Assembly (NCBI GenBank): GCA_020444765.1
Contig: JAGRHW010000019.1
Coordinates: 1-19,051, forward strand
Length of the DNA stretch: 19,051 bases
Direction: 5' to 3'
Source: Gammaproteobacteria bacterium
Lineage (GTDB): Bacteria > Pseudomonadota > Gammaproteobacteria > Granulosicoccales > Granulosicoccaceae
The stretch's first letter is position 1, and every line of letters begins with the position of its first letter. This document shows, in pieces, positions 1-19,051 of the stretch. Both the position numbers and the translations under genes were made by a program. Below the pieces are notes generated by a model, which ran no database searches, had not been told where the DNA came from, and saw only the letters and a program-made list of their open reading frames with translations.

Positions 1-41
1 TTCCGTACGGCTTGCATCATTGGCGAGTTTTCCATGTTCCG
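1..41. repeat. Terminal direct overlap (left copy), circular-contig signature
   Basis: Bases 1-41 are identical to 19011-19051. The overlap lies inside a 36-bp coding repeat (one unit plus 5 bp), so the assembly was probably broken in the repeat array of a circular molecule. The copy number of the repeat may have been collapsed or miscounted. Confidence 0.85.
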
Positions 42-209
42 TACGGCTTGCATCATTGGCGAGTTTTCCATGTTCCGCACGGCTTGCATCGATGGTAAGT
101 TCTCTATGTCCCGCACGGCTCTCATCATTGGGGATAGAGAACGGGAGCAGTCGATGCAGATCATTTCCTCATTTTTAATATTTTTACTACATAGTATGCA
201 TTTTTTCAT
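1..209 (-). CDS. N-terminal part of zinc-ribbon/repeat/SH3 protein (continues at 19051)
   Basis: This is the 5' part of a minus-strand gene that runs off base 1 and continues from the right end of the window. The ATG at 209-207 lies 18 nt after the repA stop and is followed by an open frame reading MKKCILCSKNIKNEEMICIDC. Two CxxC pairs (residues 4-7 and 18-21) make a short zinc ribbon. From about residue 24 a 12-residue repeat begins, first degenerate (SLSPMMRAVRDI, ENLPSMQAVRNM), then nearly perfect (MENSPMMQAVRN). Merging the identical 41-base ends keeps the frame and gives about 321 residues in total. A GGGGAAAG stretch 8 nt before the ATG could be a weak ribosome site. The gene is probably co-transcribed with repA. 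The zinc ribbon and the reading frame are seen directly; function is unknown. Confidence 0.75.
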   Translation of the reverse strand, partial: MKKCILCSKNIKNEEMICIDCSRSLSPMMRAVRDIENLPSMQAVRNMENSPMMQAVRNMENSPMMQAVR

Positions 210-227
210 GGGACATGCTTTCCCCGC

Positions 228-1286
228 TTATATACCTTGTTTCGTCCGTGCATAACGGTTGCGGCAAAATCCAATAAACGCTTTGTCGGGGTCTGTTAGG
301 GGGGGGCATCCGGTATCAATCCAGTGAGTAATCCAATCGGACTCCCAAGCATAAACATCTTGACCAAGTGTATAGGAGCGCGCTTTCTCGTAGGTTTCAT
401 CAGGGTTTTGAATGTAAGGTCTGCGTTCCGTAAGCTTCTTATCTTCCCACCATTTTTTGCGATTAATAAAAATCATTTTATCATTGAGTTCGTCAATTTC
501 TATTGCATAGTCTGGCAGACTATTACGTTCGGCGATTTCTTTTAGCGCTTGTTTAAAGCGTTTTTTTGTCCCGCGCGAACCGCTTTTTTTGTAAATCAGA
601 TCGATACTTATCGGGTGCTCATCTTTTCGACCGCAATGCTTACGTCCAAGCTCGTAAATGCGCCGTTCTATTGGTTTCCTAAGTCTGAAGTAATCGGGAT
701 GTAGGGTTAAGACACTGGTGTTTTCAACGGCTTGATACATCCAGTTTGATAGGGTTATGTCACACCACAAAAGTCGACCATCAATCCCATTTTTTCGTCG
801 TATCCCTGCCTCATCAATAAGATTAAATGCCCTCCACTCCTCTTCATCGCCTGTTTGTATATTGGTTCGAATTTTGGTGCCTTGCAGGCGGTCTAGGCTG
901 TCTTGTAAAGCCATATAATCACGGCCAGACGTGCCTCGGTTAGTAAATATCAGCAAATCTTTGCTGTTAATTCGTACTGTGCGGGATATTGCCTCTCCCC
1001 TATTTTTTTTTGCCATAAGTTGAGAAATAGCAAATATCAAAATGTCTTTGTCGTAGATCGTGGCGGCTCCGCCTATGTCAGGCCGAATTTCGATCCAATT
1101 GCCATTATGCTCATACCGTCTTACGGTGGTATCCGGCTTTTTTGATAGTGAGTAAAACGGATGCTCCATTTCTTGGGTGATGTCTTTTAGAACAGCGTCA
1201 GCAACATCGCAAATGAAGAAGTCACCTTGTGGATATCGAAGAGGTGAAAGTTGTTTCTCGTCGTTTTTCGTGGTTTTAGGTACCAT
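228..1286 (-). CDS. repA: Plasmid replication initiator RepA (RPA family)
   Basis: This is the initiator that should bind the adjacent iterons and open the origin with DnaA. The region MEHPFYSLSKKPDTTVRRYEHNG, followed by IEIRPDIGGAATIYDKDILIFAISQL (about residues 40-95), is the hallmark of the 'replication initiator protein A' (RPA) family of proteobacterial plasmids. The later RKPIERRIYELGRKHCG segment looks like a winged-helix DNA-binding part. Length (352 residues) fits the family. I chose the ATG at 1286; an upstream in-frame TTG at 1292 is possible. Iteron 1 (1269-1284) lies inside the first codons, and iteron 2 fills the spacer of a likely promoter, so autorepression by RepA is expected. 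No good Shine-Dalgarno precedes the ATG. The stop lies 18 nt before the zinc-ribbon/SH3 gene. Confidence 0.93.
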   Translation of the reverse strand: MVPKTTKNDEKQLSPLRYPQGDFFICDVADAVLKDITQEMEHPFYSLSKKPDTTVRRYEHNGNWIEIRPDIGGAATIYDKDILIFAISQLMAKKNRGEAISRTVRINSKDLLIFTNRGTSGRDYMALQDSLDRLQGTKIRTNIQTGDEEEWRAFNLIDEAGIRRKNGIDGRLLWCDITLSNWMYQAVENTSVLTLHPDYFRLRKPIERRIYELGRKHCGRKDEHPISIDLIYKKSGSRGTKKRFKQALKEIAERNSLPDYAIEIDELNDKMIFINRKKWWEDKKLTERRPYIQNPDETYEKARSYTLGQDVYAWESDWITHWIDTGCPPLTDPDKAFIGFCRNRYARTKQGI

Positions 1287-1291
1287 CTTCA

Positions 1292-1321
1292 AATATTCGT
1301 GGTTTTAGGTACCTGTGTCAA
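1292..1321 (-). promoter_or_regulatory. Likely repA promoter, overlapped by iteron 2
   Basis: On the minus strand TTGACA (1321-1316) is followed after 18 nt by AATATT (1297-1292). The spacer is essentially iteron 2 (1298-1313). The predicted transcript start (about 1285-1286) coincides with the repA ATG, which implies a leaderless message and direct repression by RepA bound to the iteron. Confidence 0.55.
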
Positions 1322-1350
1322 TAATTCGTGGTTTTAGGTACCTTTCTGAT

Positions 1351-1359
1351 TGTGGATAA
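1351..1359 (-). promoter_or_regulatory. DnaA box 1
   Basis: TGTGGATAA is the exact complement of the DnaA consensus TTATCCACA. It sits in the 30-bp gap between the two iteron groups. Confidence 0.8.
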
Positions 1360-1533
1360 CTTTTTCCTTCATCGTGGTTTTAGGTACCTTTCATCGTGGT
1401 TTTAGGTACCTTTCATCGTGGTTTTAGGTACCGTGCACAATATATTTTTGTTGTTTTTCATTACGTTATAGGATTTTTTCTGTTCCTAACACATATTTAA
1501 CACTATTTTTAACACTTAAAACACCTCATTTTC

Positions 1534-2081: not shown

Positions 2082-2408
2082 ATGACATGGATAGTAGAAA
2101 CGCTCAATGAAACCGTAGATGCTGAATTAGAAGCCTTGCCCAAGGATATGAAAGCCAGGTTTTCTTTTATCGGCAGATTGATACAAAGTCACGGATTGGA
2201 AAAAATCCATGAACCGCACATCAAACACCTTGAAGGTGATTTGTGGGAAATGCGGATGAAGGGCAAAGACGGGATTTCAAGGGCAATCTATGTTACGGCA
2301 AGACCCAAGCGGGTTGTTGTTGTGCGGGTTTTCATCAAGAAAACGCAAAAGACACCACGGCGGGAAATAACCCTTGCCTTGAAACGCGCAAAGGAGATAA
2401 ACCAATGA
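2082..2408 (+). CDS. RelE/HigB-like (Gp49 family) toxin
   Basis: This 108-residue protein resembles the phage-derived Gp49/HigB branch of RelE-type toxins, which cleave mRNA on the ribosome. Visible family features are the helical N-terminal half, the KHLEGDLWEMRMK strand, then SRAIYVTARPKRVVVVRVFIKKTQKTPRREI followed by a basic helix. That is the usual order WElR-(x)n-R(I/A)iY...vvlL..F.KK..KtP..ei. It is first in a three-gene operon, the toxin-first order of higBA loci. Its TGA overlaps the next ATG (2405-2408). The ATG at 2082 has no clear Shine-Dalgarno, which would keep toxin translation low. The assignment rests on sequence pattern only. Confidence 0.85.
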   Translation: MTWIVETLNETVDAELEALPKDMKARFSFIGRLIQSHGLEKIHEPHIKHLEGDLWEMRMKGKDGISRAIYVTARPKRVVVVRVFIKKTQKTPRREITLALKRAKEINQ

Positions 2409-2689
2409 CAAAATTAAAAGATTTACATGACAAGTGGTATAAGAACGATCCCGAGTATGCCGCCGAATATGATGCGCTCGAAGATGAATTTGCCTTGGCT
2501 TCCGCAGTCATCAACGCGCGAAAACAAGCCAATTTGACGCAAGAGGAGCTGGCGAAAAAAATGGAAACCACGCAAGCGCAAATTGCCCGTATTGAAGGCG
2601 GAAAAATGCCTTCCATGCGCACATTGGAGCGTTTGGCCGCAGCCACGGGCACACAGTTGAAAGTCACTTTTGAATCAGTGCCTAAATAA
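2405..2689 (+). CDS. HigA-like XRE-family antitoxin
   Basis: The protein has 94 residues. I set the start at the ATG at 2405, which overlaps the toxin stop (ATGA) and is preceded by AAAGGAG. A C-terminal Cro/C1-type helix-turn-helix is clear: INARKQANLTQEELAKKMETTQAQIARIEGG, then a further MRTLERLAAATG helix. The acidic N-terminal half (DPEYAAEYDALEDEF) is typical of HigA-type antitoxins paired with Gp49 toxins. It should neutralise the upstream toxin and repress the operon through the inverted repeat at 2034-2055. Its stop overlaps the start of a second HTH gene by one base. Confidence 0.88.
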   Translation: MTKLKDLHDKWYKNDPEYAAEYDALEDEFALASAVINARKQANLTQEELAKKMETTQAQIARIEGGKMPSMRTLERLAAATGTQLKVTFESVPK

Positions 2690-3009
2690 TGGTTAGAAAA
2701 CACAGAACCAACAGCGAAGCCATGGAAGATTATTTCCGCGCCTGGCCGGAAGACATCGAGCGGTATCTAAAAGGGATTTTCGAAGATTACGCGGAATATG
2801 GGGATAGCGCGGTGCTGTTGACCCAGCTTCGCACCGTTGCCCGCGCCAAGGGCATCAGTGAAATGGCCAACGAAATCGGCATGACCCGCCAAGGGCTACA
2901 AAAAGCCCTCTCGTCAAAGGGAAATCCCCGCTTGGAGAACGTCAACGCCATCATGAAGGCCATGGGCTATCACCTTGTCCCCCAGAAACTGGACAGCCTC
3001 AACGGATAA
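2689..3009 (+). CDS. HI1420-family addiction-module antidote-like HTH protein
   Basis: This 106-residue protein has the order DYFRAWPEDIERYLKGIFEDYAEYGD, then a helix-turn-helix, ISEMANEIGMTRQGLQKALSSKGNPRLENVNAIMKAMGYHL. That is the pattern of the 'probable addiction module antidote' (HI1420-like) family. Such proteins normally follow an HI1419-type toxin, but here the gene follows the toxin/HigA-like pair with a one-base stop/start overlap (TAATG at 2687-2691). It is therefore a second antitoxin without its own toxin, in the same operon. It could add repression or protect against a chromosomal toxin. Its 3' end overlaps the convergent 67-residue ORF by 11 nt. Confidence 0.82.
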   Translation: MVRKHRTNSEAMEDYFRAWPEDIERYLKGIFEDYAEYGDSAVLLTQLRTVARAKGISEMANEIGMTRQGLQKALSSKGNPRLENVNAIMKAMGYHLVPQKLDSLNG

Positions 3010-5421: not shown

Positions 5422-5916
5422 TCATGAGCTGAGCCTGCGATATGAATATACCAGCCATTGAAGTGGCTTTGTCTGTGGTAAAAAGGAAGAAACAATCAGC
5501 CATGATATGCATAATCCACCGACGATATATAAACGAAGCGAAGGACTAACGGCATCATCGCTTCCTAATTGCCACAAGGCTATCTTAAAAATTAAAAGAG
5601 CCGCTATGAAGGCTGCAAAAGTTCGAGACAAAGTCCAAAAATTATTAAGTAGACCTAGTAAAATAGCACCGCTGAAAATGAGCATGAAGGGATTGTCCCA
5701 GGATGGTAGATTGGGGGTAGCATATTTCTGCCACAGAGCAATATACCCCCCAAACAGGGAATCTATCAAATTTGCGATTAACTCCTCACCTAACCATGTT
5801 TTGATGCCGAAGAACAAAGTAATCATGAAAAGCCAGTAGGCTATTGATGCTACCGCATCGCGAACTCCCAAAGATTGTTGTTCGTTGCTGGGATGATGAT
5901 GGATTTGTTTAGCCAT
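5422..5916 (-). CDS. Polytopic inner-membrane protein, last gene of the coupling-protein operon
   Basis: I chose the ATG at 5916, which overlaps the 3' end of the coupling-protein gene by 8 nt (ATGGCTAA) and has AGGAG 11 nt upstream. The 164-residue protein has a His-containing hydrophilic N-terminus and about four hydrophobic segments (roughly residues 23-40, 77-95, 98-117 and 128-146). I do not recognise the family. Because the adjacent VirD4-like ATPase lacks its normal N-terminal membrane anchor, this protein could serve as a separate membrane partner. That is an inference from position and topology. Confidence 0.75.
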   Translation of the reverse strand: MAKQIHHHPSNEQQSLGVRDAVASIAYWLFMITLFFGIKTWLGEELIANLIDSLFGGYIALWQKYATPNLPSWDNPFMLIFSGAILLGLLNNFWTLSRTFAAFIAALLIFKIALWQLGSDDAVSPSLRLYIVGGLCISWLIVSSFLPQTKPLQWLVYSYRRLSS

Positions 5917-7231
5917 ATTTTTTAAATCTCCTATCTTTAAAGTAGGGTTTCGGACGGAGCGAAAGGACATCATCGCCCCGGGCAATGACGATCATGCGGC
6001 GGGCAACATCATCCTTTTCACGAACAGCGATGTGCTTTCTGATTTCCTGTGGGGTCATCAGCCGTCTTCCAACGAACTCTTTATCAACGCCAAACAATCC
6101 CGCTGATTCTCTTGTTCCAATTAAGTTAGAGAGATATTCGAGTGTGTCGATATCATCTACGCCAAAGTAACTCTGAAAATCCGCCCCGGAGAAAAAATTA
6201 GCAGTGCCATCCTTGCCATATAATGATAAAAATTGTCCATAGTTTTGTAGAACACTGATCAGATGAAGCCCGCGTGATCTAAGAAGGCCATAACTCGTGG
6301 ATATTTCGTCGATTGTTCCACAGGCAGGCATTTCATCTAACAGAAACAAGCATTCACGGCCTTTCTCTTTTCCGTCTTTCGTCCTCCTAGACATTTGATC
6401 GATTGCACAGCGAACAAACACTCGAAGGAATCGACCATGTTGTTTCAAGTAGTTTGGCGGCAAGACCAGGTACACAGAAGTTTTTTTCTCTTTTAGGTCT
6501 GAAAGTGAGAAGGAAGCTGTCCCGTGTGTTGTAACCATCGGGTCACTATCGAGCCATCGAGTATTTTCTTCTGCATTCGAGATGTATTCGTCTCCCTTAG
6601 CGCATAAAATCGACTTTGCGGCTGTCTGTATTGTCCCACCACAACGAGTATCATCTTGCATATGGGTTTTAGCCATATGTTGTAAGTCACTTGTGCGAAT
6701 GACTTTCCTGACTTCTGACAAAGTTTGTAGTTCAGGCGGGGCATCGCATTTTACAAGTGCAATCACCCCTGAAATGATATTATGCGCGTGGTTATCCCAC
6801 ATGGCATGTCTTGGTTCATGGCGCATGATAAGGCCATCTGATATCACATTGATGTCCTCTACAATGTTCGGGGCATTAATATCGATATCGGAGAGAGGGT
6901 TGTAAGATACCCGAAATTCATCAGGAAGCTTTTTGGCCTCTTTGAAAGGGTCTATGACATAGCTGTTTTGCTTGAACTTCTTTTGCCGATAGACAGCGGT
7001 TAGTTCAGAGAGCTCTCCCTTAGGGTCAATCGTTAACGCGTTGTGTTTCCATCTGAAGAGATTTTGAGAAAGTAGGCATGCACCTTTACCGCCTCCGGAG
7101 CTGGAAATTATGATGCCATGGCGGCGTAGCTTAACGCCGACCGACCGTCTTAGAAGTGATGAGACACCCAAGAAGAATTTGTTCCTGCCGTACTTATATT
7201 TACCAGCACTAGTGAATTTCATTGAAGGCAT
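5909..7231 (-). CDS. VirD4/TraG-type coupling ATPase (T4CP), anchor-less
   Basis: A type IV coupling protein brings the relaxase-DNA complex to a secretion channel. Seen here: a Walker A variant SSSGGGKGA (residues 43-51), TIDPKGEL (67-74), the NPLSDI region, Walker B CLFLLDEMPACG (294-305), and the SRGLHLISVLQNYGQFLSLYG segment typical of TraG/VirD4. At 440 residues it is short, and no hydrophobic segment precedes the NTPase domain, unlike canonical T4CPs of about 600-700 residues with an N-terminal membrane domain. AGGAG lies 10 nt before the ATG at 7231. The plasmid carries no recognisable VirB channel genes, so it probably works with a helper system. Several small membrane proteins share its operon. 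Confidence 0.9.
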   Translation of the reverse strand: MPSMKFTSAGKYKYGRNKFFLGVSSLLRRSVGVKLRRHGIIISSSGGGKGACLLSQNLFRWKHNALTIDPKGELSELTAVYRQKKFKQNSYVIDPFKEAKKLPDEFRVSYNPLSDIDINAPNIVEDINVISDGLIMRHEPRHAMWDNHAHNIISGVIALVKCDAPPELQTLSEVRKVIRTSDLQHMAKTHMQDDTRCGGTIQTAAKSILCAKGDEYISNAEENTRWLDSDPMVTTHGTASFSLSDLKEKKTSVYLVLPPNYLKQHGRFLRVFVRCAIDQMSRRTKDGKEKGRECLFLLDEMPACGTIDEISTSYGLLRSRGLHLISVLQNYGQFLSLYGKDGTANFFSGADFQSYFGVDDIDTLEYLSNLIGTRESAGLFGVDKEFVGRRLMTPQEIRKHIAVREKDDVARRMIVIARGDDVLSLRPKPYFKDRRFKKYG

Positions 7232-7256
7232 CGATGCAAAACTCCTGTTCCAGCTA

Positions 7257-7664
7257 TTAAGAGTAATGAGTGCTGTTTTTGTAGTGGGATTGTCGGCGCT
7301 CAGAGGTCTCTAATGCTCGGTTGAGTGCGAGCTCTATAGGCTCCATTTTCCAGTACAAGCCAATCGCGGCTATACCATCAACATTCAGTCCTCTTAACTC
7401 CAAGGTAACGACAGACCAGGCTAGGCCACTGATCACGGCAGTAGCGACTATGCTGAAAAGAATTTCGTAGGCATAAAGCAACTCATAGCAAAAGCCAACC
7501 ATGCCCAGAGTCCCAAGTAAGACTGGCAGCAAAACGTAAAAATGGGCACGTCCGAGTCTCACATGCGTAATAGCCGATACTCGATATCCCTTGTTCGGCG
7601 TTTTAAAATGTCGCGATGTCACCGTGTATTGCTTGTCTTTGTAGAGGTCTCTTTCACCGCCCAT
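7257..7664 (-). CDS. Small inner-membrane protein of the transfer operon (135 aa)
   Basis: The protein has a hydrophilic N-terminus of about 40 residues, then two hydrophobic helices (about 42-61 and 66-88) and a cytoplasm-like C-terminus (LGLYWKMEPIELALNRALETSERRQS). Size and two-helix topology resemble small bitopic subunits of secretion systems such as VirB3-like proteins, but I see no diagnostic motif and do not assign it. The gene overlaps the upstream one by 11 nt and ends 25 nt before the coupling-protein gene. Confidence 0.75.
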   Translation of the reverse strand: MGGERDLYKDKQYTVTSRHFKTPNKGYRVSAITHVRLGRAHFYVLLPVLLGTLGMVGFCYELLYAYEILFSIVATAVISGLAWSVVTLELRGLNVDGIAAIGLYWKMEPIELALNRALETSERRQSHYKNSTHYS

Positions 7665-8328
7665 AGCCGTACCTCATCTTGTATTCTTGACGTTTCCGGT
7701 CAATCCAATTTAGGCCGTCTTCCCATAGATCCATGCTGGTGTCGGTTGTTCGGTTTCTTAGCTCGTCAGCCCGTTGAATACGTTCCAATTGTTCCTGGGC
7801 ATATTGGCTTCCCGGCAAGTTCTGCGTGAGTTGTGAAAGGTTCCCAGATGTTGGTGTCAGCTGGGAGGGCAATGTGAAGGACGGTAATTGTACGGTTGCC
7901 GTAGTATTTTCTGATTCTTGTCCAGAGTCAGTCTCTAGTGGATTTTCTTGTTTATTAGCTTTCTGATTTGTCGAGGCAACGATAGGGTGATTGCAGCGTT
8001 TACGGCGATCTGTATCTTGCATTTGCAGTGAAACATATTCCACATAGGGATTGCGCTTTGAGCCGAAAAATTCGACACGCGGTTCTGACAGTGAAAACGA
8101 TGATAAAAACAGGGCATTCATGAGCGCCCCTCGACCAACCCGGATATCCTCAATAATACATTGGCATAGGGGCTGACTGGCTCCGGCTTCACACTCGGAT
8201 GCTAAATGGAGATTTGCGGCTCGCACCGTTAATTCTGGTGCGAGCCACAGGTAACAAATGACAAACCAAACCCCTGCGCCGACTAAAAACGGCACCATAC
8301 TTTCAGGTATTTTAAAGGGCATATCCAT
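7654..8328 (-). CDS. Membrane-anchored, Cys-containing, Pro/Thr-rich protein (224 aa)
   Basis: One N-terminal hydrophobic segment (about residues 11-30) is followed by a part with clustered cysteines (SECEAGASQPLCQCIIED), then a low-complexity Gln/Pro/Ser/Thr linker (about 125-175). The C-terminus is charged (RIQRADELRNRTTDTSMDLW, ending RYGYGR). The cysteines suggest that the part after the anchor is periplasmic. No known family recognised. It starts 5 nt after the vWA-like gene and overlaps the next gene by 11 nt, so it belongs to the same operon. Confidence 0.75.
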   Translation of the reverse strand: MDMPFKIPESMVPFLVGAGVWFVICYLWLAPELTVRAANLHLASECEAGASQPLCQCIIEDIRVGRGALMNALFLSSFSLSEPRVEFFGSKRNPYVEYVSLQMQDTDRRKRCNHPIVASTNQKANKQENPLETDSGQESENTTATVQLPSFTLPSQLTPTSGNLSQLTQNLPGSQYAQEQLERIQRADELRNRTTDTSMDLWEDGLNWIDRKRQEYKMRYGYGR

Positions 8329-8333
8329 CGGCG

Positions 8334-9353
8334 TTACCCCATGTCAGTATGGCAGTGAGAGCATATATAGGGCTCTTCTGTGTCGTCCCCTGCGCCGGAT
8401 TGAGCCGTTTGATCTATGGTATAACGTAACCGTTTTGCGGGAGCCACCACCTCTGCACCGGCATCTTCAAAGAATGCTGGCCAGAAATCTCTCAACTCAT
8501 CATTCGTACAATATTCAAGACCTGCGGAGGGTAAAGACAGCAATTCAACAAGTAGAAAATCCACCTTTGTTTGTTCGAAGCCTTCGGGCTTTACAAGATC
8601 ATAGGTGCGTGTTTTCTTAAACAAAGGGAATGGAGGCAGGTGATTACGTGTTTGGCAAAATTGTGCAATCTCTGAATTCTGTATTCCGTCTGTGTAGACG
8701 TAAAAGTGGTTGAGTTGTTGCTTTTGACGGAGGTAGTAACCACCGATGCCCTGAATTTGCTCTAGAATTGGGGACTCTTTACTCGACTTCTCTGCGCGCT
8801 CCGCGATCAGCGTGTCCACCGCTTCCATGTATGTCTTCTTGGCTTGATCATATTGATACTTGTGTTGGGCAAGTGTTTTCTCTGGAAGACCCACTCGCTG
8901 CGACTCCAGAGGAGTCTTCGCGGGTCTGCACATAGTAAAAAACGGTTTGACAACCGAACTGCTGATACCGCTCGCTGTACTGAACCAATTAACCCGTCCC
9001 CCAGCTTCACTAGCTTCAAAAGCATTTTCTAAAGAGTTTCGCAGATCACGAATTTGCTCCGGTGATGCAAATTCGGTGACTGAATAATCGATAAAGAATC
9101 CGGTTTGATATTGATCGGGTATATCTTCGTAGCAGAAGGTCTTCATGTTCATGCTGACCTGGTTGGCGGCGTTACCTACGAACCAATAGGCGCTTCCCAA
9201 GGTAGTGGCGAGCATTAGGATGAAAGCGGTCAATAGCGGCCAGCTTTGATGATTTCGGCGGCTTGATCGGGAAGGGCTTCGACGACGGACGCCGGCGCGG
9301 CGAGATTTCGATGGACGTTGTTTGGAGCGGTTGTTTTTTGATCTACTCAACAT
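8334..9353 (-). CDS. Membrane-anchored von Willebrand A-like protein of the transfer operon
   Basis: An extremely basic Ser/Arg-rich N-terminus (about 35 residues) precedes one transmembrane helix (about 38-59), so the rest should be periplasmic. The core has the order FFIDYSVTEFASPEQIRDLRNSLENAF, RVNWFSTAS, VVKPFFTMCRP, ESPILEQIQGIG, then LNHFYVYTDGIQNSE. This is the pattern of a widespread vWA-like family found beside coupling-protein genes, in which the first strand usually reads (L)D.TDPL. Here the MIDAS-type DxSxS is reduced to DYS. The C-terminus ends with CSHCHTDMG, a CxxCH that could bind metal or, less likely, heme. It overlaps the preceding gene by 11 nt. Its molecular role is not known to me. 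Confidence 0.78.
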   Translation of the reverse strand: MLSRSKNNRSKQRPSKSRRAGVRRRSPSRSSRRNHQSWPLLTAFILMLATTLGSAYWFVGNAANQVSMNMKTFCYEDIPDQYQTGFFIDYSVTEFASPEQIRDLRNSLENAFEASEAGGRVNWFSTASGISSSVVKPFFTMCRPAKTPLESQRVGLPEKTLAQHKYQYDQAKKTYMEAVDTLIAERAEKSSKESPILEQIQGIGGYYLRQKQQLNHFYVYTDGIQNSEIAQFCQTRNHLPPFPLFKKTRTYDLVKPEGFEQTKVDFLLVELLSLPSAGLEYCTNDELRDFWPAFFEDAGAEVVAPAKRLRYTIDQTAQSGAGDDTEEPYICSHCHTDMG

Positions 9354-10080
9354 GAGGGGCGTCCTCCTCTTTGTGTGAATTCAAAAAAGCTTGATAAGCG
9401 GCTCTGACTTCGGTTAATGCAGTTTGGCGTTGAACATCCAGTCGGCTTAGAACATCAGTGGGGTCAGGTGTCGGCGTATTGATTTCTAATTCCTGCATGA
9501 CCTTGTCCACAAAAATACGGTATTTTGAAAAATCAGTTGCGGAGTCGATATTTTTGGCGTTGATGTGTTTAGAGGCGTTGACGCGGTCTGATTCTTTCCG
9601 TTCCAATTTGTCAATCAATTGGTTGTACGCAATCAGCTCATCACGTAGTTCATCAAGTTGTGCGTTGTACTCGTCAGTTTCTTCTTGCACATCGATGGCT
9701 TGCTCCATGGCCTCAACTGCATAGTCATAGGCCGATTCAATCGTTTCTTCGGCATCCTCAAGAGCGTTTTGTGCTACTTCGTCTATGGCAGAAGTCGCTT
9801 GGCGCTGCGTTTTCGAAAATCCAGGGATTACATCTGAGAATCCTGAATATGATTTGAGAATTGACAATAATGACCCGATGACAGCCAGAGCCAGAATCAA
9901 TAGCGTGTAACCATCATTAAAGGTCTGAAAGAAGGAAATTTCTGAAAAAGTGAATATATGATCGTGGCCACCGAGAGCGCGTACACGGGCGGCCGAAAAT
10001 ATTAATAATCCGAGCAGGCCGCCGAGTAGAACAAAACCAATGCGAGCTAAGAGGCGGGTTCTGACGGCGGCGGTCATCAT
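9343..10080 (-). CDS. Membrane protein with acidic coiled coil (245 aa)
   Basis: Two hydrophobic helices (about residues 14-32 and 57-77) are followed by a long acidic helical stretch (about 95-165: IDEVAQNALEDAEETIESAYDYAVEAMEQ and on) with coiled-coil character. A second helical part is at the C-terminus. I do not recognise a family. The start ATG at 10080 overlaps the preceding stop (ATGA) and has an excellent AGGAGG. The long coil could scaffold or space the membrane complex. Second gene of the seven-gene operon. Confidence 0.77.
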   Translation of the reverse strand: MMTAAVRTRLLARIGFVLLGGLLGLLIFSAARVRALGGHDHIFTFSEISFFQTFNDGYTLLILALAVIGSLLSILKSYSGFSDVIPGFSKTQRQATSAIDEVAQNALEDAEETIESAYDYAVEAMEQAIDVQEETDEYNAQLDELRDELIAYNQLIDKLERKESDRVNASKHINAKNIDSATDFSKYRIFVDKVMQELEINTPTPDPTDVLSRLDVQRQTALTEVRAAYQAFLNSHKEEDAPHVE

Positions 10081-10574
10081 CGTTCCTCCTGGAATCTCAC
10101 GTTCAAATAGCGGAGTACGTAAAAGCCGATGAATGCACCCAGGGTGACATTGACCGATGAAAACACCAAACCATAGAGAATCCCTTCACCAGGCCCCATT
10201 TTGCCTTCCAGCCCGAAGACTATGCCAGCCATCAGACCTTCAGCCAGTGCGCCTAAACCAATGGCAATCACAGTTTTCACTGAGTCAGGCTCATCTGCAT
10301 CCCGGTCAATTCCACGTTGATGCTTAAATAACTTCAGGATGTCCGTAGCCTTGCGACGTTGTCGTGATAGCTCACCTCGGAAGTGTTGCACCGCTTTGTT
10401 GGCACAGTGCTGTATATCCTCTGTGTGTTGCTGAACACGCATGTCCGTGGTTGAAAAATCAAATCGTGGTTTACTTGCTCGGACTTCGGCAATACGACGA
10501 GAGGTTCCCCGGTATGCATCGTCGGCTTCGAATTTTATCTTTTCACGTTCTTTGATGATGGCTTTGAATTGCAT
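10077..10574 (-). CDS. Membrane protein, first gene of the transfer operon (165 aa)
   Basis: A basic, helical, soluble N-terminal part (about residues 1-95) is followed by two glycine-rich transmembrane helices (about 100-121 and 130-155) and the short tail RYLNVRFQEER. The small-residue pattern (GLGALAEGLMAGIVFGLEG) suggests tight helix packing, as in membrane oligomers. No family recognised. A strong GGAGGTGA precedes the ATG at 10574, marking the start of the operon. Tandem CAAACTGCA repeats upstream may be its operator. Confidence 0.77.
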   Translation of the reverse strand: MQFKAIIKEREKIKFEADDAYRGTSRRIAEVRASKPRFDFSTTDMRVQQHTEDIQHCANKAVQHFRGELSRQRRKATDILKLFKHQRGIDRDADEPDSVKTVIAIGLGALAEGLMAGIVFGLEGKMGPGEGILYGLVFSSVNVTLGAFIGFYVLRYLNVRFQEER

Positions 10575-12684: not shown

Positions 12685-12734
12685 AAGTGCGCACTTATAC
12701 ATTGCAAGCAATGTGTGCGGTCGGCAAAGCCGAC
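12685..12734 (-). other. oriT: Origin of transfer (oriT), R1162/MobQ type
   Basis: Read on the minus strand, a perfect inverted repeat ACATTGC-TT-GCAATGT (12714-12699) is followed after one base by TAAGTGCG (12697-12690), then CACTTCC. In R1162/RSF1010 the MobQ oriT has the same order: an inverted repeat, a short spacer, then TAAGTGCG with the nick after the last G. By analogy the nick here falls between 12690 and 12689 on the minus strand. A further hairpin GTCGGC-AAA-GCCGAC (12720-12734) lies beside it. The location between divergent mobC and mobA genes agrees. Confidence 0.83.
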
Positions 12735-12808: not shown

Positions 12809-14338
12809 ATGGCTGAGTATCGACTGAGTTCAAACGTGATAAGCAGGAGCAACGGATCGTCTTCCGTGGCATCGAGCGCTTATCGTTCGGGTACTCGTCT
12901 CGTGGATGAACGCACCGGCGTTATCCACGACTACAGCCGCAAGGGCGGTGTTCTGCACCACGAAATTCTGGCACCAGAAAACACGCCCCATTGGATGCTT
13001 GACCGTGGCCAACTTTGGAACGCTGTCGAGACAATCGAGCGGCGCAAAGATGCCCAGCTATCGCGCGAAATCCAATTATCCTTGCCCCATGAACTGACCC
13101 ACGAACAACGCCTGGAGCTTGCTCGTGGATTTGTTCAGGAGCAATTTGTCGATAAAGGCATGATTGCCGATGTGGCGATTCATGCCCCCGACAAAAACGG
13201 CGACCAACGCAACCACCATGCACATATCATGTTGACCATGCGCAACCTGACGCAGGACGGTTTTGATAAGAAAAACCGTGACTGGAACAATAAGGATTTG
13301 CTCCAGTCTTGGCGGCAGGAATGGGCGAACCATCAAAACCGTGATTTAGAGAAATACGGTCATGATGCGCGTGTCGATCACCGCTCTTACCTCGATCAGG
13401 GTATCGATCGAGAACCCCAACAACACTTAGGTACGCACGCTTCGGATATGAAACGTAAAGGCAAGCCTTCGCGTATTGTTGAAGAAAATGACGCCATCGA
13501 GAAACGTAACGCCATGCGAGCCAGCCACTACGCTCGACTGGCGCAAGAGGCCGCCGCTATGTCGCGCAAAAATGAGTTTGAACAAGCCGCAACCCGTAAA
13601 CGAAATGAATCCTTAGCGCAAAGTGCGGCCGCCAAGCGGCAGATGGAAGCAAGACACAAAAAAGAGATCGCCGCTTTCAATGACTGGAAGGCTCAGAATG
13701 GACGGCAGACCATCAAGCAAGAGATCAAGGCGACCCAGGAGCGCCTGGAAACCACAGGGATTAAAAAAGTGGTGCGCGATGTCTTGGGAAGAACGACGGC
13801 GGATAAACAGGCGCTTATCGATTTGAAGATTGCCGCGAAGCAGTTGAAAGAGCAGGAGAACACCAAACAGCTTCAGCTTGAAATTGCCCAACAGCGCGAG
13901 CGTGAACAATTTCAGCATAAGGCGAAGCGGCAACAAGAACAACAGAAGGCGCAAGAAAAAAAGCGGCAGGTATCTCAATCACGCAGTGAGCGGAGCGGTG
14001 ATAATCGATCACTGAAGCCGCGAACACGCAAGGAAGACCAACCCAAGCCCGAGCCTCCGCCGCCCCGTGAGGCACTTTCTATCGCTCAGTCCTGGGCGGA
14101 GAAGTCCGGACAGAACGCCAGGCGTGTGAGTGAGGCGGTGCAGGCTAGAAAGATCGATACCAGCAAGATGAAAATTGCTGAAAATGAACCGAGCAAACCA
14201 GCCAAGCCAGATGCTTCAAAGCAGGATATTGCCCAATCTTGGGCAGAGAAGTCCGGTCAACAGTCATCACAGCGTGCCAATGACAACAAACCTAAGCGGA
14301 CATTGACGCCGAAGCGGCCGCGAGGGTTAGAGAGATAG
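12809..14338 (+). CDS. mobA: MobQ-family relaxase (MobA/MobL)
   Basis: The relaxase nicks oriT and pilots the strand to the recipient. The start is set at ATG 12809 (MAEYRLSSNVISRSNGSSSVASSAYRSGTRL), the conserved N-terminus of the family; the longer frame from 12713 would run through oriT. The catalytic tyrosine is probably Y25 (SSAYRSG), and the metal-binding motif III is H125..D128..NHHAHI (135-140). After about residue 270 comes a Gln/Lys/Glu-rich coiled-coil tail instead of a primase or helicase domain, 509 residues in all. The tail holds two copies of IAQSWAEKSGQ (425-435 and 474-484) and a basic end KPKRTLTPKRPRGLER, probably the type IV secretion signal. The same motif recurs in the nearby Doc protein. 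Confidence 0.93.
   Translation: MAEYRLSSNVISRSNGSSSVASSAYRSGTRLVDERTGVIHDYSRKGGVLHHEILAPENTPHWMLDRGQLWNAVETIERRKDAQLSREIQLSLPHELTHEQRLELARGFVQEQFVDKGMIADVAIHAPDKNGDQRNHHAHIMLTMRNLTQDGFDKKNRDWNNKDLLQSWRQEWANHQNRDLEKYGHDARVDHRSYLDQGIDREPQQHLGTHASDMKRKGKPSRIVEENDAIEKRNAMRASHYARLAQEAAAMSRKNEFEQAATRKRNESLAQSAAAKRQMEARHKKEIAAFNDWKAQNGRQTIKQEIKATQERLETTGIKKVVRDVLGRTTADKQALIDLKIAAKQLKEQENTKQLQLEIAQQREREQFQHKAKRQQEQQKAQEKKRQVSQSRSERSGDNRSLKPRTRKEDQPKPEPPPPREALSIAQSWAEKSGQNARRVSEAVQARKIDTSKMKIAENEPSKPAKPDASKQDIAQSWAEKSGQQSSQRANDNKPKRTLTPKRPRGLER
14081..14113 (+). repeat. IAQSWAEKSGQ-coding repeat, copy 1 (mobA)
   Basis: This is one of three in-frame copies of a segment encoding IAQSWAEKSGQ (14081-14113, 14228-14260 and 15087-15119). 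Copy 1 and the doc copy share their first 23 bases exactly; copy 2 has diverged at synonymous positions. Confidence 0.9.
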
Positions 14339-14357
14339 GGACAAAGTTGCTTTATTC

Positions 14358-14403
14358 TTGAAAAATAGATAATTTAGTGATAATGTCTAATATGTGGGTT
14401 TGT
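14358..14403 (+). promoter_or_regulatory. phd-doc promoter region with a par-type motif
   Basis: TTGAAA (14358-14363) is followed by GATAAT (14379-14384, 15-nt spacer) or TAATGT (17-nt spacer). Just downstream, ATGTGGGTTTGT (14392-14403) is an exact 12-bp match, in the opposite orientation on the plus strand, to the partition repeat ACAAACCCACAT found around parA. Its position at the expected transcription start fits an operator. Confidence 0.5.
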
Positions 14404-14424
14404 CGATAACAAAAAGGAGGTTCT

Positions 14425-14661
14425 ATGCCGCGCGTTACATCAACCGAGTTCCAACAAAGTGTTGGTACTTACAGTGATACGGCTTTGAAAGAGCCTGTCA
14501 TCATCACGAGTCACAACCGCGACCGCTTGGTTCTTATGGGTGTGGAAGAATATAACCGTTTGAAAGGATTGGAAGAAGCAATGGATAAAGAAACAGAAAA
14601 ATTGATCACTCAAAGCATTAATGATCATCGAAGCACGTTAGAAAAACTTGCTCTGAAATGA
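14425..14661 (+). CDS. phd: Phd/YefM-family antitoxin
   Basis: This 78-residue protein has the Phd/YefM fold signature: a short N-terminal strand and helix (TSTEFQQSVGTYSDTAL), then EPVIITSHNRDRLVLMGVEEYNRL. The N-terminal domain would bind DNA and autoregulate; the C-terminal helix (about 50-78) would fill the active-site groove of Doc. An excellent AAAAAGGAGG precedes the ATG. The gene overlaps doc (ATGA at 14658-14661), the usual antitoxin-first translational coupling. It lies 86 bp after mobA on the same strand. Confidence 0.92.
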   Translation: MPRVTSTEFQQSVGTYSDTALKEPVIITSHNRDRLVLMGVEEYNRLKGLEEAMDKETEKLITQSINDHRSTLEKLALK

Positions 14662-15188
14662 GTGATCCCAAGTGGCTTTCTCGTAAAGACGTTGAAAAAA
14701 TTCACACGCAAGTAATTGAAGCGGCGGGCGGATCGCATGGTTTGCGAGATGCCGGCTTGCTTGAGTCTGCCATAGCTCGGCCATTAAACCAGCATGCCTA
14801 CGGTGAAGAAGACACTTTTCAATTAGCGGCCAGTTACGCCGAAGGCATTGCTCGTAATCATGCCTTTGTCGATGGCAATAAGCGCACAGCATGGACGGCG
14901 GCGGATGTCTTTTTGCGGAAAAATGGTTATGCGATCCAAGCGCGTGAAGATGATCAACATGTCAACATGATGGAAAGTTTGGGACAAGGAAAAATGAGCC
15001 GGGAAGATGCCGGCAGTTATTTGCGTGAAAACTCTCGTGAGTTCCGGCGAGAGCAATCACGATCTGATGCTACAGAGCAACGTGATATCGCTCAGTCCTG
15101 GGCGGAGAAATCAGGACAACGTAAAAATAAAAATGATAGCCTAGAGAAAAAACCTACTCAAACCCCTTCCCGAGGTCGTAAGTATTAA
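14658..15188 (+). CDS. doc: Doc (Fic-domain) toxin with relaxase-like C-terminal tail
   Basis: The Fic active-site motif HAFVDGNKR lies at residues 68-76. The P1 Doc toxin phosphorylates EF-Tu, using the same histidine-containing motif. The domain order WLSRKDVEKIHTQVIEAAGGSHGLRDAGLLESAIARP, then AASYAEGIARNHAF and the motif, is canonical for Doc. The family is normally about 125-130 residues; this one has 176. The extra C-terminal ~45 residues contain DIAQSWAEKSGQ (143-154), also present twice in MobA, and end with KKPTQTPSRGRKY, similar to the MobA end. The first 23 nt of the motif are identical to mobA copy 1 (14081 and 15087). This suggests the tail was copied from the relaxase and could act as a type IV secretion signal. 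Confidence 0.92.
   Translation: MSDPKWLSRKDVEKIHTQVIEAAGGSHGLRDAGLLESAIARPLNQHAYGEEDTFQLAASYAEGIARNHAFVDGNKRTAWTAADVFLRKNGYAIQAREDDQHVNMMESLGQGKMSREDAGSYLRENSREFRREQSRSDATEQRDIAQSWAEKSGQRKNKNDSLEKKPTQTPSRGRKY
15087..15119 (+). repeat. IAQSWAEKSGQ-coding repeat, copy 3 (doc)
   Basis: The doc copy encodes the same peptide as the mobA copies. Its DNA is closest to mobA copy 1, with differences only in the last third, so duplication or gene conversion between adjacent genes is likely. Confidence 0.9.
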
Positions 15189-15373: not shown

Positions 15374-15423
15374 TAATTAGTGTTAACTAATTATATTTAT
15401 CTGTGGCTCCACACAATTTGTGT
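15374..15423. promoter_or_regulatory. Two inverted repeats before the membrane-protein gene
   Basis: TAATTAGT-GTTA-ACTAATTA (15374-15393) is a perfect 8-bp inverted repeat. ACACAATTTGTGT (15411-15423) is a palindrome with one central base that overlaps the likely start codon. The rest of the 230-bp gap after doc is AT-rich with only a 20-codon frame. These repeats are probable operator or promoter elements. Confidence 0.4.
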
Positions 15424-16040
15424 TGAGCAATTTAACTGGATATGAACTATTGCTTGAAACAATTGGCCTTATTGCATCCATATTAGGGATAGCATCCTTT
15501 TTTGGAATAAGTGTAAAAACTCTATTAGAGATAGAGTCTGATGATTTTTTTGGCTGCATCACGTTTCTTATACAGTTATCTTTTGTAATCTTTATATCAT
15601 ACTTCATTTTTTATGGTGATGGACTTGTGATTCTTTGGGAGGGGAAATGGTTTTTTGGTACTTTGTTGATAATAATTGGAATTGTACGTTTTACATTAGA
15701 TGTTGAGGGCTGGTGGGACGTTCTACTAATTACGATTATAATTTTTTTATGTTTACTTTTGCTTTGGATCGGTGGCTATATTTTATATAGTCTATTTACG
15801 GAATTTATTCTCCCCATAGATATACAACCAACTATAATTTTTGGTAAGAGTCTTGATTTCCTAAGAGAAGCGAAATGGTATATTGGTGTATTTTTTATAC
15901 TATTTGTGATTAGTCGTGTTACTGGTCGAAAATTTGATGATGTGATAGGCTATTTTTTTAAATCTATTCCCTACATACTCCTTGCCATTGCAATAGTCGG
16001 ATTTGTATATCTTATATTTAAGGAGTTCATTTTCAATTAA
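15420..16040 (+). CDS. AT-rich polytopic membrane protein (about 206 aa)
   Basis: Not recognised. The start is GTG 15420 or TTG 15423; no strong Shine-Dalgarno is visible, so the start is uncertain. About five or six hydrophobic segments span most of the protein (around residues 10-35, 45-67, 75-90, 100-125, 150-165 and 180-203). Loops are short and contain acidic residues. The codons are strongly AT-biased compared with mobA and doc, pointing to recent acquisition. Neighbours are phd-doc upstream and a convergent sigma-like gene. Function unknown. Confidence 0.62.
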   Translation: MLSNLTGYELLLETIGLIASILGIASFFGISVKTLLEIESDDFFGCITFLIQLSFVIFISYFIFYGDGLVILWEGKWFFGTLLIIIGIVRFTLDVEGWWDVLLITIIIFLCLLLLWIGGYILYSLFTEFILPIDIQPTIIFGKSLDFLREAKWYIGVFFILFVISRVTGRKFDDVIGYFFKSIPYILLAIAIVGFVYLIFKEFIFN

Positions 16041-18253: not shown

Positions 18254-19051
18254 TCACTCTTCACTTTTTGAATCGACTATCAATAGATACCGGCTATGAA
18301 CCCAGCCAACCCTGCTCAGATTGGCCAAGTAATCAAAAAACTCAATTTTTACCCAATCTCGGTTCCTCTCTAACTCTACAACCTTTTTATTCTTTGGAAG
18401 AACTTCAATAACCTTGTGATCTACACTCGGCCCCGCCCTGAGGTTCAGCTCCCTATCTGTAACGGAAAAAACATAGTTGGCATTGTTGCTCTGCAGGATA
18501 TCAAACTGTGTCGTTATGGTCTGTTCCAAATCATTAATTCTCTCGGAAATTCTTGTCTCTGATTCTATCGCTGATTTTTGAGAGAGAAGATAAAGAATAA
18601 ATGAGAAGATAAGGGCTAAATAAAACTCCGCGCTTAAGCGGGTTTCCGGTGTGCGGCTTGCCCTATCTTTGACTTTTTCCGAGAAAGACTCCCAATTATC
18701 ATCATTCTTTACTTCTGTAATCTCATCTAATAGAAGGTCGTATGCTTCGGATAAAGCTAATGCACCGTATTCATGTTTGAGTTGATCAGCTACTCTGGAG
18801 AACGCTTTTATAGAAGGGAGTTTTTCAAGTTCTTTTATAGCCAGAAATGTGGAAATGTTTTGTATTTCACGTATGGCTTTGAAAGCTGCAGAATTCTCTA
18901 AGTCATGAATCATCCGCCATGCCGCCGAGTTTTCCATGTCCCGTACGGCTTGCATCATTGGCGAGTTTTCCATGTTCCGTACGGCTTGCATCATTGGCGA
19001 GTTTTCCATGTTCCGTACGGCTTGCATCATTGGCGAGTTTTCCATGTTCCG
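18254..19051 (-). CDS. Repeat / membrane / SH3 protein (C-terminal part; N-terminus at 209-1)
   Basis: This is the main part of the gene that starts at 209 and crosses the circular junction. From the N-terminus of this part come 12-residue repeats, perfect at first (MENSPMMQAVRN) and then degenerate (MENSAAWRMIHD, LENSAAFKAIRE, IQNISTFLAIKE, LEKLPSIKAFSR). Next is a helical region (QLKHEYGALALSEAYDLLLDEI), one transmembrane segment (FYLALIFSFILYLLS), a short coiled coil (RISERINDLEQTITTQFDILQ) and a C-terminal SH3b domain (LNLRAGPSVDHKVIEVLP, ending VGWVHSRYLLIV). SH3b domains often bind peptidoglycan or peptides outside the membrane. With the N-terminal zinc ribbon the topology would be cytoplasmic ribbon and repeats, then a periplasmic SH3b. 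Function unknown; it may connect plasmid or replication factors to the envelope. Confidence 0.82.
   Translation of the reverse strand, partial: RNMENSPMMQAVRNMENSPMMQAVRNMENSPMMQAVRDMENSAAWRMIHDLENSAAFKAIREIQNISTFLAIKELEKLPSIKAFSRVADQLKHEYGALALSEAYDLLLDEITEVKNDDNWESFSEKVKDRASRTPETRLSAEFYLALIFSFILYLLSQKSAIESETRISERINDLEQTITTQFDILQSNNANYVFSVTDRELNLRAGPSVDHKVIEVLPKNKKVVELERNRDWVKIEFFDYLANLSRVGWVHSRYLLIVDSKSEE
18930..19051 (-). repeat. 36-bp tandem coding repeat (MENSPMMQAVRN)
   Basis: Three near-identical 36-bp units are present here and two more at 1-75, plus older degenerate units on both sides. After merging the 41-base overlap there are about four near-perfect copies, but the count is uncertain because the assembly ends inside the array. 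Such arrays change length readily. Confidence 0.85.

What the first reader, a model, noticed from the sequence alone, without database searches (positions are those of the whole stretch)
14081..15188. Doc toxin shares the relaxase's C-terminal tail: a possible conjugation-exported Fic toxin
Seen: IAQSWAEKSGQ occurs twice in MobA (residues 425-435 and 474-484) and once in Doc (144-154). After the last copy both proteins end within about 22-25 residues in a basic tail with a TxTPxRxR-like pattern (MobA KRTLTPKRPRGLER, Doc KKPTQTPSRGRKY). The Doc copy shares 23 identical bases with mobA copy 1. Known: Doc is normally about 126 residues without such an extension; relaxases and VirB/D4 substrates carry basic C-terminal signals, and Bartonella Bep effectors join a Fic domain to a relaxase-derived BID signal. 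Inference: Doc may be recognised by the same coupling protein and delivered to recipients or rival cells along with the DNA, turning an addiction module into a transferred effector.
Basis: partly seen in the sequence, partly recalled or inferred. Interest (0 to 1): 0.93.

Follow-up and report, generated by a model that had tools for sequence, protein, structure and literature searches.

The report
Toxin wearing its relaxase's export tail
A plasmid-borne Doc toxin ends in the same motif and the same kind of basic tail as the plasmid's own DNA-transfer enzyme, and other plasmids pair a Doc with their own, differently worded transfer-enzyme tail, so the tail is likely a shipping label that would send the toxin into recipient cells along with the plasmid DNA.

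Summary
In detail: IAQSWAEKSGQ occurs twice in the MobQ relaxase and once in Doc. All codon differences among the three copies are synonymous. Both proteins end in a basic tail (net +6 in the last 25 residues). Doc is a Phd-Doc toxin with an intact Doc motif plus a 50-residue extension.

It is part of a pattern. On Loktanella (L002) and Jannaschia (L003) contigs, whose relaxases are of another family, a tailed Doc carries that contig's own, different relaxase tail; the relaxase is by far the best match among all ORFs. L046 matches weakly; L001 and L012 do not match. Tail type and presence changed repeatedly on the tree of Doc cores. A non-Doc protein on a Pelagovum plasmid shares its relaxase's tail too.

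Best reading: a relaxase-derived signal for the type IV coupling protein, so Doc would be a toxin exported during mobilization. Export is untested. The nearest precedent is VbhT (FIC plus BID), hence a new variant of a known kind. Against: 45 of 56 tailed Doc relatives, including all 22 of the KDW type, match none of the 240 relaxases compared at z of 4 or more.

The parts
12809..14338 (+). mobA, MobQ-family relaxase, 509 aa; C-terminal tail with two IAQSWAEKSGQ copies and a basic end
   Evidence: PF03389 250.7 bits; NF041496 MobQ 286.2 bits, cut-off 200
14081..14113 (+). IAQSWAEKSGQ copy 1 in mobA (residues 425-435), the copy closest in DNA to that of doc
14228..14260 (+). IAQSWAEKSGQ copy 2 in mobA (residues 474-484)
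14261..14335 (+). basic end of MobA, 25 residues
   Evidence: net +6 in the last 25 residues
14425..14661 (+). phd, antitoxin, 78 aa; its stop overlaps the start of doc by 4 bases; no such tail
   Evidence: PF02604 43.0 bits; TIGR01552 25.8 bits, cut-off 20.8; sequence
14658..15188 (+). doc, toxin, 176 aa, motif HAFVDGNKR at residues 68-76
   Evidence: PF02661; TIGR01550 DOC_P1 76.5 bits, cut-off 38.65; P1 Doc by sequence and fold; motif
15036..15185 (+). C-terminal extension of Doc (residues 127-176): IAQSWAEKSGQ plus basic end
   Evidence: helix 137-158 at modest confidence, the rest unstructured
15087..15119 (+). IAQSWAEKSGQ copy in doc (residues 144-154)
5909..7231 (-). type IV coupling protein (VirD4/TraG type), 440 aa, the likely receptor of both tails (inferred)
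   Evidence: PF02534 172.8 bits
12689..12697 (-). possible nick region of a MOBQ oriT (TAAGTGCGC; motif recalled, from no call) in an inverted repeat upstream of mobA
   Evidence: 1 match, 0.14 expected; 25 of 200 shuffles have one; inverted repeat 12690-12719: weak

Best explanation
This is a Phd-Doc toxin whose 50-residue C-terminal extension repeats the motif and basic end of the plasmid's own MobQ relaxase, and the extension likely acts as a transport signal by which the plasmid's coupling protein would send Doc into recipient cells during mobilization. Shown: the shared motif with synonymous changes only, basic ends on both proteins, an intact Doc motif, a coupling protein on the same plasmid, and own-relaxase tails on the Docs of other plasmids. 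Inferred: Phd keeps Doc inactive in the donor; the coupling protein accepts the relaxase tail and the Doc tail alike and feeds both into a helper type IV channel (no channel gene above a family cut-off was found in the 25 window ORFs scanned); unfolding on the way would strip off Phd; in the recipient Doc would phosphorylate EF-Tu and stop translation until Phd is made from the incoming plasmid. Recipients would thus become dependent on the plasmid, or be held in arrest while it establishes, before any plasmid gene is expressed. The tail was probably taken from the relaxase gene by recombination, since doc is closest in DNA to mobA copy 1.
For: Own tail against all other ORFs: window Doc 91 with MobA, next 30; L002 Doc 79 with its relaxase, next 35; L003 Doc 104, next 37; z = 9.9, 7.9 and 11.4. 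The L002 and L003 relaxases are PF03432, the window's is PF03389. Own-versus-other pairing: best of 24 permutations for four DNA-linked pairs, 2 of 720 for six. Two further Doc/relaxase pairs on contigs of equal length (8514 and 7969) share tails. P0002 and P0242, relatives of the window's Doc and MobA, share an extra tail stretch absent here and score 144 (linkage not shown). Synonymous-only changes in the window and in L002. Repeated gain or loss of the tail: 'no tail' needs 21 changes on the core tree, at least 12 forced by well-supported branches. MobQ or PF03432 relaxases found with 5 of 6 tailed Docs and 2 of 36 tail-less ones (but see evidence against). Basic last 25 residues (net above +1): 40 of 56 tailed Docs, 19 of 64 short ones, 119 of 120 and 85 of 120 relaxases. 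Published: the last 48 residues of RSF1010 MobA carry Cre through VirB/D4 (PMC10025392, passages); cloned positively charged C-termini generally supported Cre transfer through an F system (PMC11288057, passages).
Against: No transfer was tested. 45 of 56 tailed Docs reach no z of 4 with any of 240 listed relaxase tails, among them all 22 of the KDW type. Two of six tailed loci with a relaxase-like gene show no tail match: L001 (MobQ-like) and L012 (Mob_Pre). L046 is weak (z 2.9). Most Docs of one class end acidic (median net -8 for 7), which does not suit a positive-charge signal. The relaxase models do not cover Mob_Pre (they missed L012's), so the 2 of 36 may be an undercount; stretches also differ in length. 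PMC10025392 says RSF1010 MobA's signals for conjugative systems are internal, not C-terminal. No helper channel is known for this plasmid.
Confidence: 0.65

Rival explanations
1. The tail docks Doc on the coupling protein or relaxosome inside the donor only, for example to regulate mobilization, and Doc is never exported.
For: All sequence evidence for a shared binding site fits equally.
Against: Binding to a coupling protein is the step that commits known substrates to export (established knowledge); at least one Fic toxin, VbhT, with a relaxase-type signal is exported (PMC5675462, abstract and two sections).
Confidence: 0.15
2. The tails are DNA- or partner-binding basic extensions (or stability signals) shared by relaxase and Doc for a purpose unrelated to the transfer channel.
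For: Tails are strongly charged; the acidic class is hard to fit into one signal type; most tailed Docs have no matching relaxase among those compared.
Against: In three loci the specific word order of the own relaxase is copied, not just the charge; shuffles of the same letters score far lower.
Confidence: 0.1
3. Recent DNA duplication or recombination between neighbouring genes left a neutral copy of the relaxase end on doc.
For: 24 identical bases and neighbouring genes in the window; in L002 the shared 33 bases differ at 3.
Against: Only synonymous changes in the window and L002; in L003 7 synonymous and 6 other codon changes in 17 codons yet a score of 115; recurrence in three unrelated tail types; in L002 and L003 the two genes are about 4.1 and 3.8 kb apart.
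Confidence: 0.07

Closest known systems
VbhT/VbhA of Bartonella schoenbuchensis plasmid pVbh (PMC5675462; abstract, Results section 10 and Discussion seen)
   Same: A Fic-family TA toxin, encoded near the relaxase, with a relaxase-derived C-terminal signal; there shown to be transferred by the conjugative T4SS, and explained by fusion with the relaxase's signal domain.
   Different: VbhT has the FIC/AMPylation motif class and a folded BID domain; here a Doc core with a short BID-less tail, on a plasmid with its own coupling protein but no recognised channel, and with tails that differ from plasmid to plasmid together with the relaxase. Transfer is not shown here.
FicT of Methylobacterium extorquens p1METDI and PezT of Chelativorans plasmid 1 (same paper, section 10)
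   Same: TA toxins with a C-terminal extension in a mobile element's transfer region (p1METDI: directly downstream of the relaxase; Chelativorans: between the T4SS and its DNA-processing genes), proposed as substrates.
   Different: BID-like or BID extensions; not short relaxase tails; not Doc.
Fic proteins of Campylobacter fetus subsp. venerealis with a shared C-terminal KEKE motif (PMC5651007, passages seen)
   Same: Several Fic TA proteins near T4SS loci with a short shared C-terminal motif proposed as a translocation signal, not validated.
   Different: Shared among Fic proteins; the term relaxase does not occur in that main text.
CcdB and SrnB carried through pKM101, not through the F system (PMC11288057, passage seen)
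   Same: TA toxins as passengers of a conjugation machine.
   Different: No relaxase-like tail is described in the passages seen.
Phd-Doc of phage P1
   Same: Doc fold, motif and Phd partner.
   Different: P1 Doc lacks the 50-residue extension.

Membership tests
Phd-Doc toxin-antitoxin family | Doc sequence family above curated cut-off | tested here: met
   TIGR01550 76.5 bits, cut-off 38.65; Foldseek best hits 3dd7, 3k33, 3kh2
Phd-Doc toxin-antitoxin family | Catalytic motif HxFx(D/N)(A/G)NKR (consensus from PMC4177925, passages) | tested here: met
   HAFVDGNKR, residues 68-76
Phd-Doc toxin-antitoxin family | Adjacent Phd antitoxin, overlapping genes | tested here: met
   PF02604 and TIGR01552 above cut-off; phd ends at 14661, doc starts at 14658
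Phd-Doc toxin-antitoxin family | Phosphorylates EF-Tu, neutralised by Phd | not testable with these tools
   inferred from the motif; P1 Doc does so (PMC4177925, passages)
VbhT-type conjugation-exported FIC-BID toxin | FIC motif HxFx(D/E)GNGR | tested here: not met
   the window has HAFVDGNKR, the Doc form
VbhT-type conjugation-exported FIC-BID toxin | C-terminal BID domain | tested here: not met
   Pfam finds only Fic in Doc at E up to 0.001
VbhT-type conjugation-exported FIC-BID toxin | Signal shared with the plasmid's own relaxase | tested here: met
   works like it, without being a member
VbhT-type conjugation-exported FIC-BID toxin | Transfer into recipient cells | not testable with these tools
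   needs a Cre transfer assay
Short positively charged C-terminal T4SS signal | Net charge above +1 in the last 25 residues (class used in PMC11288057, passages) | tested here: met
   +6 for Doc and +6 for MobA
Short positively charged C-terminal T4SS signal | Necessary and sufficient for transfer | not testable with these tools
   none
MOBQ relaxase (partner protein) | MobQ equivalog model above cut-off | tested here: met
   NF041496 286.2 bits, cut-off 200

The most novel reading that the evidence does not exclude
Small mobilizable plasmids repeatedly stamp the export tail of their own relaxase onto passenger proteins (Doc toxins in at least three unrelated tail types, and other proteins such as P0361), so that the toxin rides into the recipient ahead of its antidote and makes the recipient dependent on the plasmid during transfer; asking which proteins share the relaxase's tail would then be a general sequence rule for finding conjugation-exported effectors.
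Probability: 0.42. Interest if true: 0.87.

Novelty: new variant of a known kind. Interest (0 to 1): 0.76.

Why it matters
Harms et al. wrote that most T4SS signals are short, positively charged and notoriously hard to predict, and expected that more TA toxins carried by conjugation would be found (PMC5675462, Discussion). Matching a toxin's tail to the relaxase of its own plasmid offers a way to find them without a folded BID domain. It also gives natural pairs of different signals on the same toxin core, with which recognition by coupling proteins can be tested. If true, a plain addiction module becomes a device that acts at the moment of transfer.

Tried and rejected
Chance or low complexity: rejected. 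A known domain in the tail: none beside Fic in Pfam or DOC_P1 in NCBIfam. Relatives of the tail in PLSDB: none at E up to 10. More tailed Docs in whole genomes: a Doc match in 5 of 394 genomes of the family of G001, of which 2 are tailed (L002 and L046); 4 of 397 in an order-wide draw, none with a tail over 10 residues (two of them are contigs already held, L004 and L016); 10 of 385 in a class-wide draw, of which only G002 (L003, known before) is tailed and the 9 places in 8 new genomes have at most 13 residues past the core. Viral contigs: 6 distant Docs without a tail. A relaxase for the KDW-type tails: none at z of 4 or more among 240 listed relaxase relatives; the genome of the KDW carrier L012 has no PF03389 match and two PF03432 matches on other contigs, whose ends I did not compare, and a Mob_Pre gene about 1.5 kb from doc with a different end. 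Screen of 28 relaxase ORFs for any tail-sharing ORF (some are copies: L054 repeats L002, L061 holds two and L062 a near-identical one): besides the three strong Docs and the weak L046 Doc, only P0361 in L051, and in L052 a piece of a broken second relaxase copy, which I count as an artefact. BrnT toxins on L051 and L053 are not tagged. P0361: no other full-length match in plasmids, one weak partial match, no Pfam family above cut-off. Rows dropped before counts: one search examined 48 loci; 6 with an incomplete Doc core (L024-L028, L032) were left out, leaving 42. In 'none' means under 25 residues past residue 129 and may include proteins cut by contig ends; 4 of the other classes rest on patterns that I chose. 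Homology lists show the best 120 of 2169, 441 and 2403 proteins.
Full report
Observation. MobA is a MobQ relaxase. Doc has the sequence family, motif and fold of P1 Doc plus 50 residues past the core. Pairwise, 3, 7 and 8 of 11 codons differ between the copies and every difference is synonymous. The remaining parts of the two tails have diverged but both are basic (net +6 in the last 25 residues). Against the ends of the other window ORFs, the Doc tail scores 91 with MobA and 30 with the next.

Setting. The first and last 77 bases of the window are identical, within a 36-bp tandem array, so it is likely, not proven, to be a whole circular plasmid. It carries an RPA-type replication protein, direct repeats beside it, ParA with a ParG-like partner, a coupling protein, MobQ, Phd-Doc and an integrase. 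Among 25 window ORFs scanned with Pfam no T4SS channel family is above cut-off; one ORF (15420-16037) has a TrbL match below it. A sequence like the RSF1010 nick region (recalled) lies upstream of mobA on the minus strand, weak evidence.

Relatives. Of the 120 best Doc relatives listed (of 2169), 56 have at least 25 residues past residue 129 and 64 do not. The extensions fall into several kinds by patterns of my choice: 4 IAQSW-like, 9 RRSAR-like, 22 KDW-like, 7 mostly acidic, 14 other. On the tree of the Doc cores (126 columns, many forks unresolved) these classes need 29 changes against 52.6 in shuffles; having no tail needs 21, of which at least 12 are forced by well-supported branches. Three close relatives of the window's Doc (P0003, P0004, P0006; 79-82% identical over 72-73% of it) have no extension.

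Co-variation with the relaxase. In L002 (Loktanella) and L003 (Jannaschia) a tailed Doc shares its contig with a coupling protein, a NikA/MobC-like protein and a relaxase of PF03432, not the window's PF03389. The L002 pair shares RRSARDIMQEQ; the L003 pair aligns RTAAEIRAEKRERSKGR with RSASEVQAEKRKRAKGR. In a screen of 28 relaxase ORFs against the other ORFs of their loci, the matches with z of 7 or more were the Docs of the window, L002 and L003, one protein in L051, and in L052 a piece of a broken second relaxase copy. In L046 the relaxase is the top match of the Doc tail but weakly (45 against 35; z 2.9). Two more Doc/relaxase pairs sit on contigs of equal length (8514 and 7969 bases), which suggests but does not prove one contig each, and share tails; in all, 4 of 4 pairs with equal contig length share tails, two of them being the window and L003 themselves. 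Own-versus-other pairing is the best of 24 permutations for the four DNA-linked pairs and 2 of 720 for all six, the tie lying between the related L002 and 7969 pairs. Relaxase P0242 and Doc P0002, relatives of the window's MobA (74%) and Doc (73%), both have an extra stretch that the window's proteins lack and score 144 with each other against 82 for P0002 with the window's MobA; their linkage is not shown.

Linkage. Of 48 Doc loci examined, 42 have a complete core. A MobQ or PF03432 relaxase was found on the fetched stretch in 5 of 6 with a tail of at least 25 residues and in 2 of 36 without, the 2 being a 118-residue fragment and a weak match (Fisher p = 0.00014, 0.0007 without the window). 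Two cautions: stretches differ in length, and these models do not see Mob_Pre relaxases. When I checked, L012, the sixth tailed locus, has a Mob_Pre gene that one search had missed; the tail-less loci were not scanned for that family.

What does not fit. 45 of 56 tails reach no z of 4 with any of 240 listed relaxase tails, among them all 22 KDW tails. Of the six tailed loci, three match their relaxase strongly, one weakly, two not at all (L001; L012, which lies between two IS240-type transposase genes). The mostly acidic tails do not suit a positive-charge signal, although the L046 relaxase, linked to a Doc whose core is 67% identical to the acidic P0104, also ends acidic.

Mechanism. The simplest reading is that the extension is the relaxase's transport signal moved onto Doc. 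As seen in print: the last 48 residues of RSF1010 MobA carry Cre through VirB/D4, while its signals for conjugative systems are internal (PMC10025392, passages); cloned positively charged C-termini generally supported Cre transfer through an F system (PMC11288057, passages); the FicT toxin VbhT with a relaxase-derived BID is transferred by a conjugative T4SS (PMC5675462, abstract and two sections). By analogy Doc would reach recipients without Phd and arrest their translation until Phd is made there. P1 Doc phosphorylates EF-Tu, and the lysine form of the motif is said to mark kinases (PMC4177925, passages); for this Doc that is inferred. AlphaFold2 places a helix at residues 137-158 with modest confidence and leaves the end unstructured. 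If the possible nick site is real and the plasmid circular, phd-doc would enter last; this is inference.

Novelty. In seven literature searches no listed title or abstract describes a toxin that shares a short tail with its own plasmid's relaxase and follows it across plasmids; of the listed papers I saw passages or sections of six, and most subscription journals are not held. The principle, a TA toxin with a relaxase-derived signal, is known from VbhT; new here are the Doc core, the short tail without BID, the mobilizable setting and the co-variation.

Noticed in passing
L051 1922-2323 (Pelagovum pacificum plasmid p_SM1903_2, NZ_CP065917.1): A 133-residue charged hypothetical protein (P0361), not a Doc, ends like the relaxase of its plasmid (score 111, z 11.8); the next gene is annotated as super-infection exclusion protein B.
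   Followed up: partly
P0011, P0013, P0023 and 19 others; L012 10001-10504: The commonest Doc extension (KDW...KAPAPKRDxDRxR-like, 22 of 56 tailed) has no relaxase partner among those compared, although its end is well conserved across many of these proteins.
   Followed up: partly
P0061, P0070, P0074, P0077, P0088, P0104: Docs, some named as Phaeobacter, with a mostly acidic tail end.
   Followed up: no
window 1-77 and 18975-19051: Identical ends inside a 36-bp tandem array that also encodes the repeated start of the 18254-19045 protein (MENSPMMQAVRN repeats, bacterial SH3 domain): likely a circular plasmid.
   Followed up: partly
window 1267-1432: Direct repeats of 29 and 22 bp beside the replication gene, iteron-like.
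   Followed up: no
window 2082-3009: A Gp49-like protein (PF05973) followed by two HTH or addiction-module-antidote-like proteins: probably a second toxin-antitoxin cluster.
   Followed up: partly
window 5422-10574: A row of minus-strand genes beside the coupling protein without Pfam families above cut-off apart from it.
   Followed up: partly
window 15420-16037: Hydrophobic protein just downstream of doc with a TrbL/VirB6 match below cut-off (19.4 against 25.9 bits).
   Followed up: no
L052 484-1882: On a Sulfitobacter pontiacus plasmid a second relaxase copy is in two pieces; described only.
   Followed up: no
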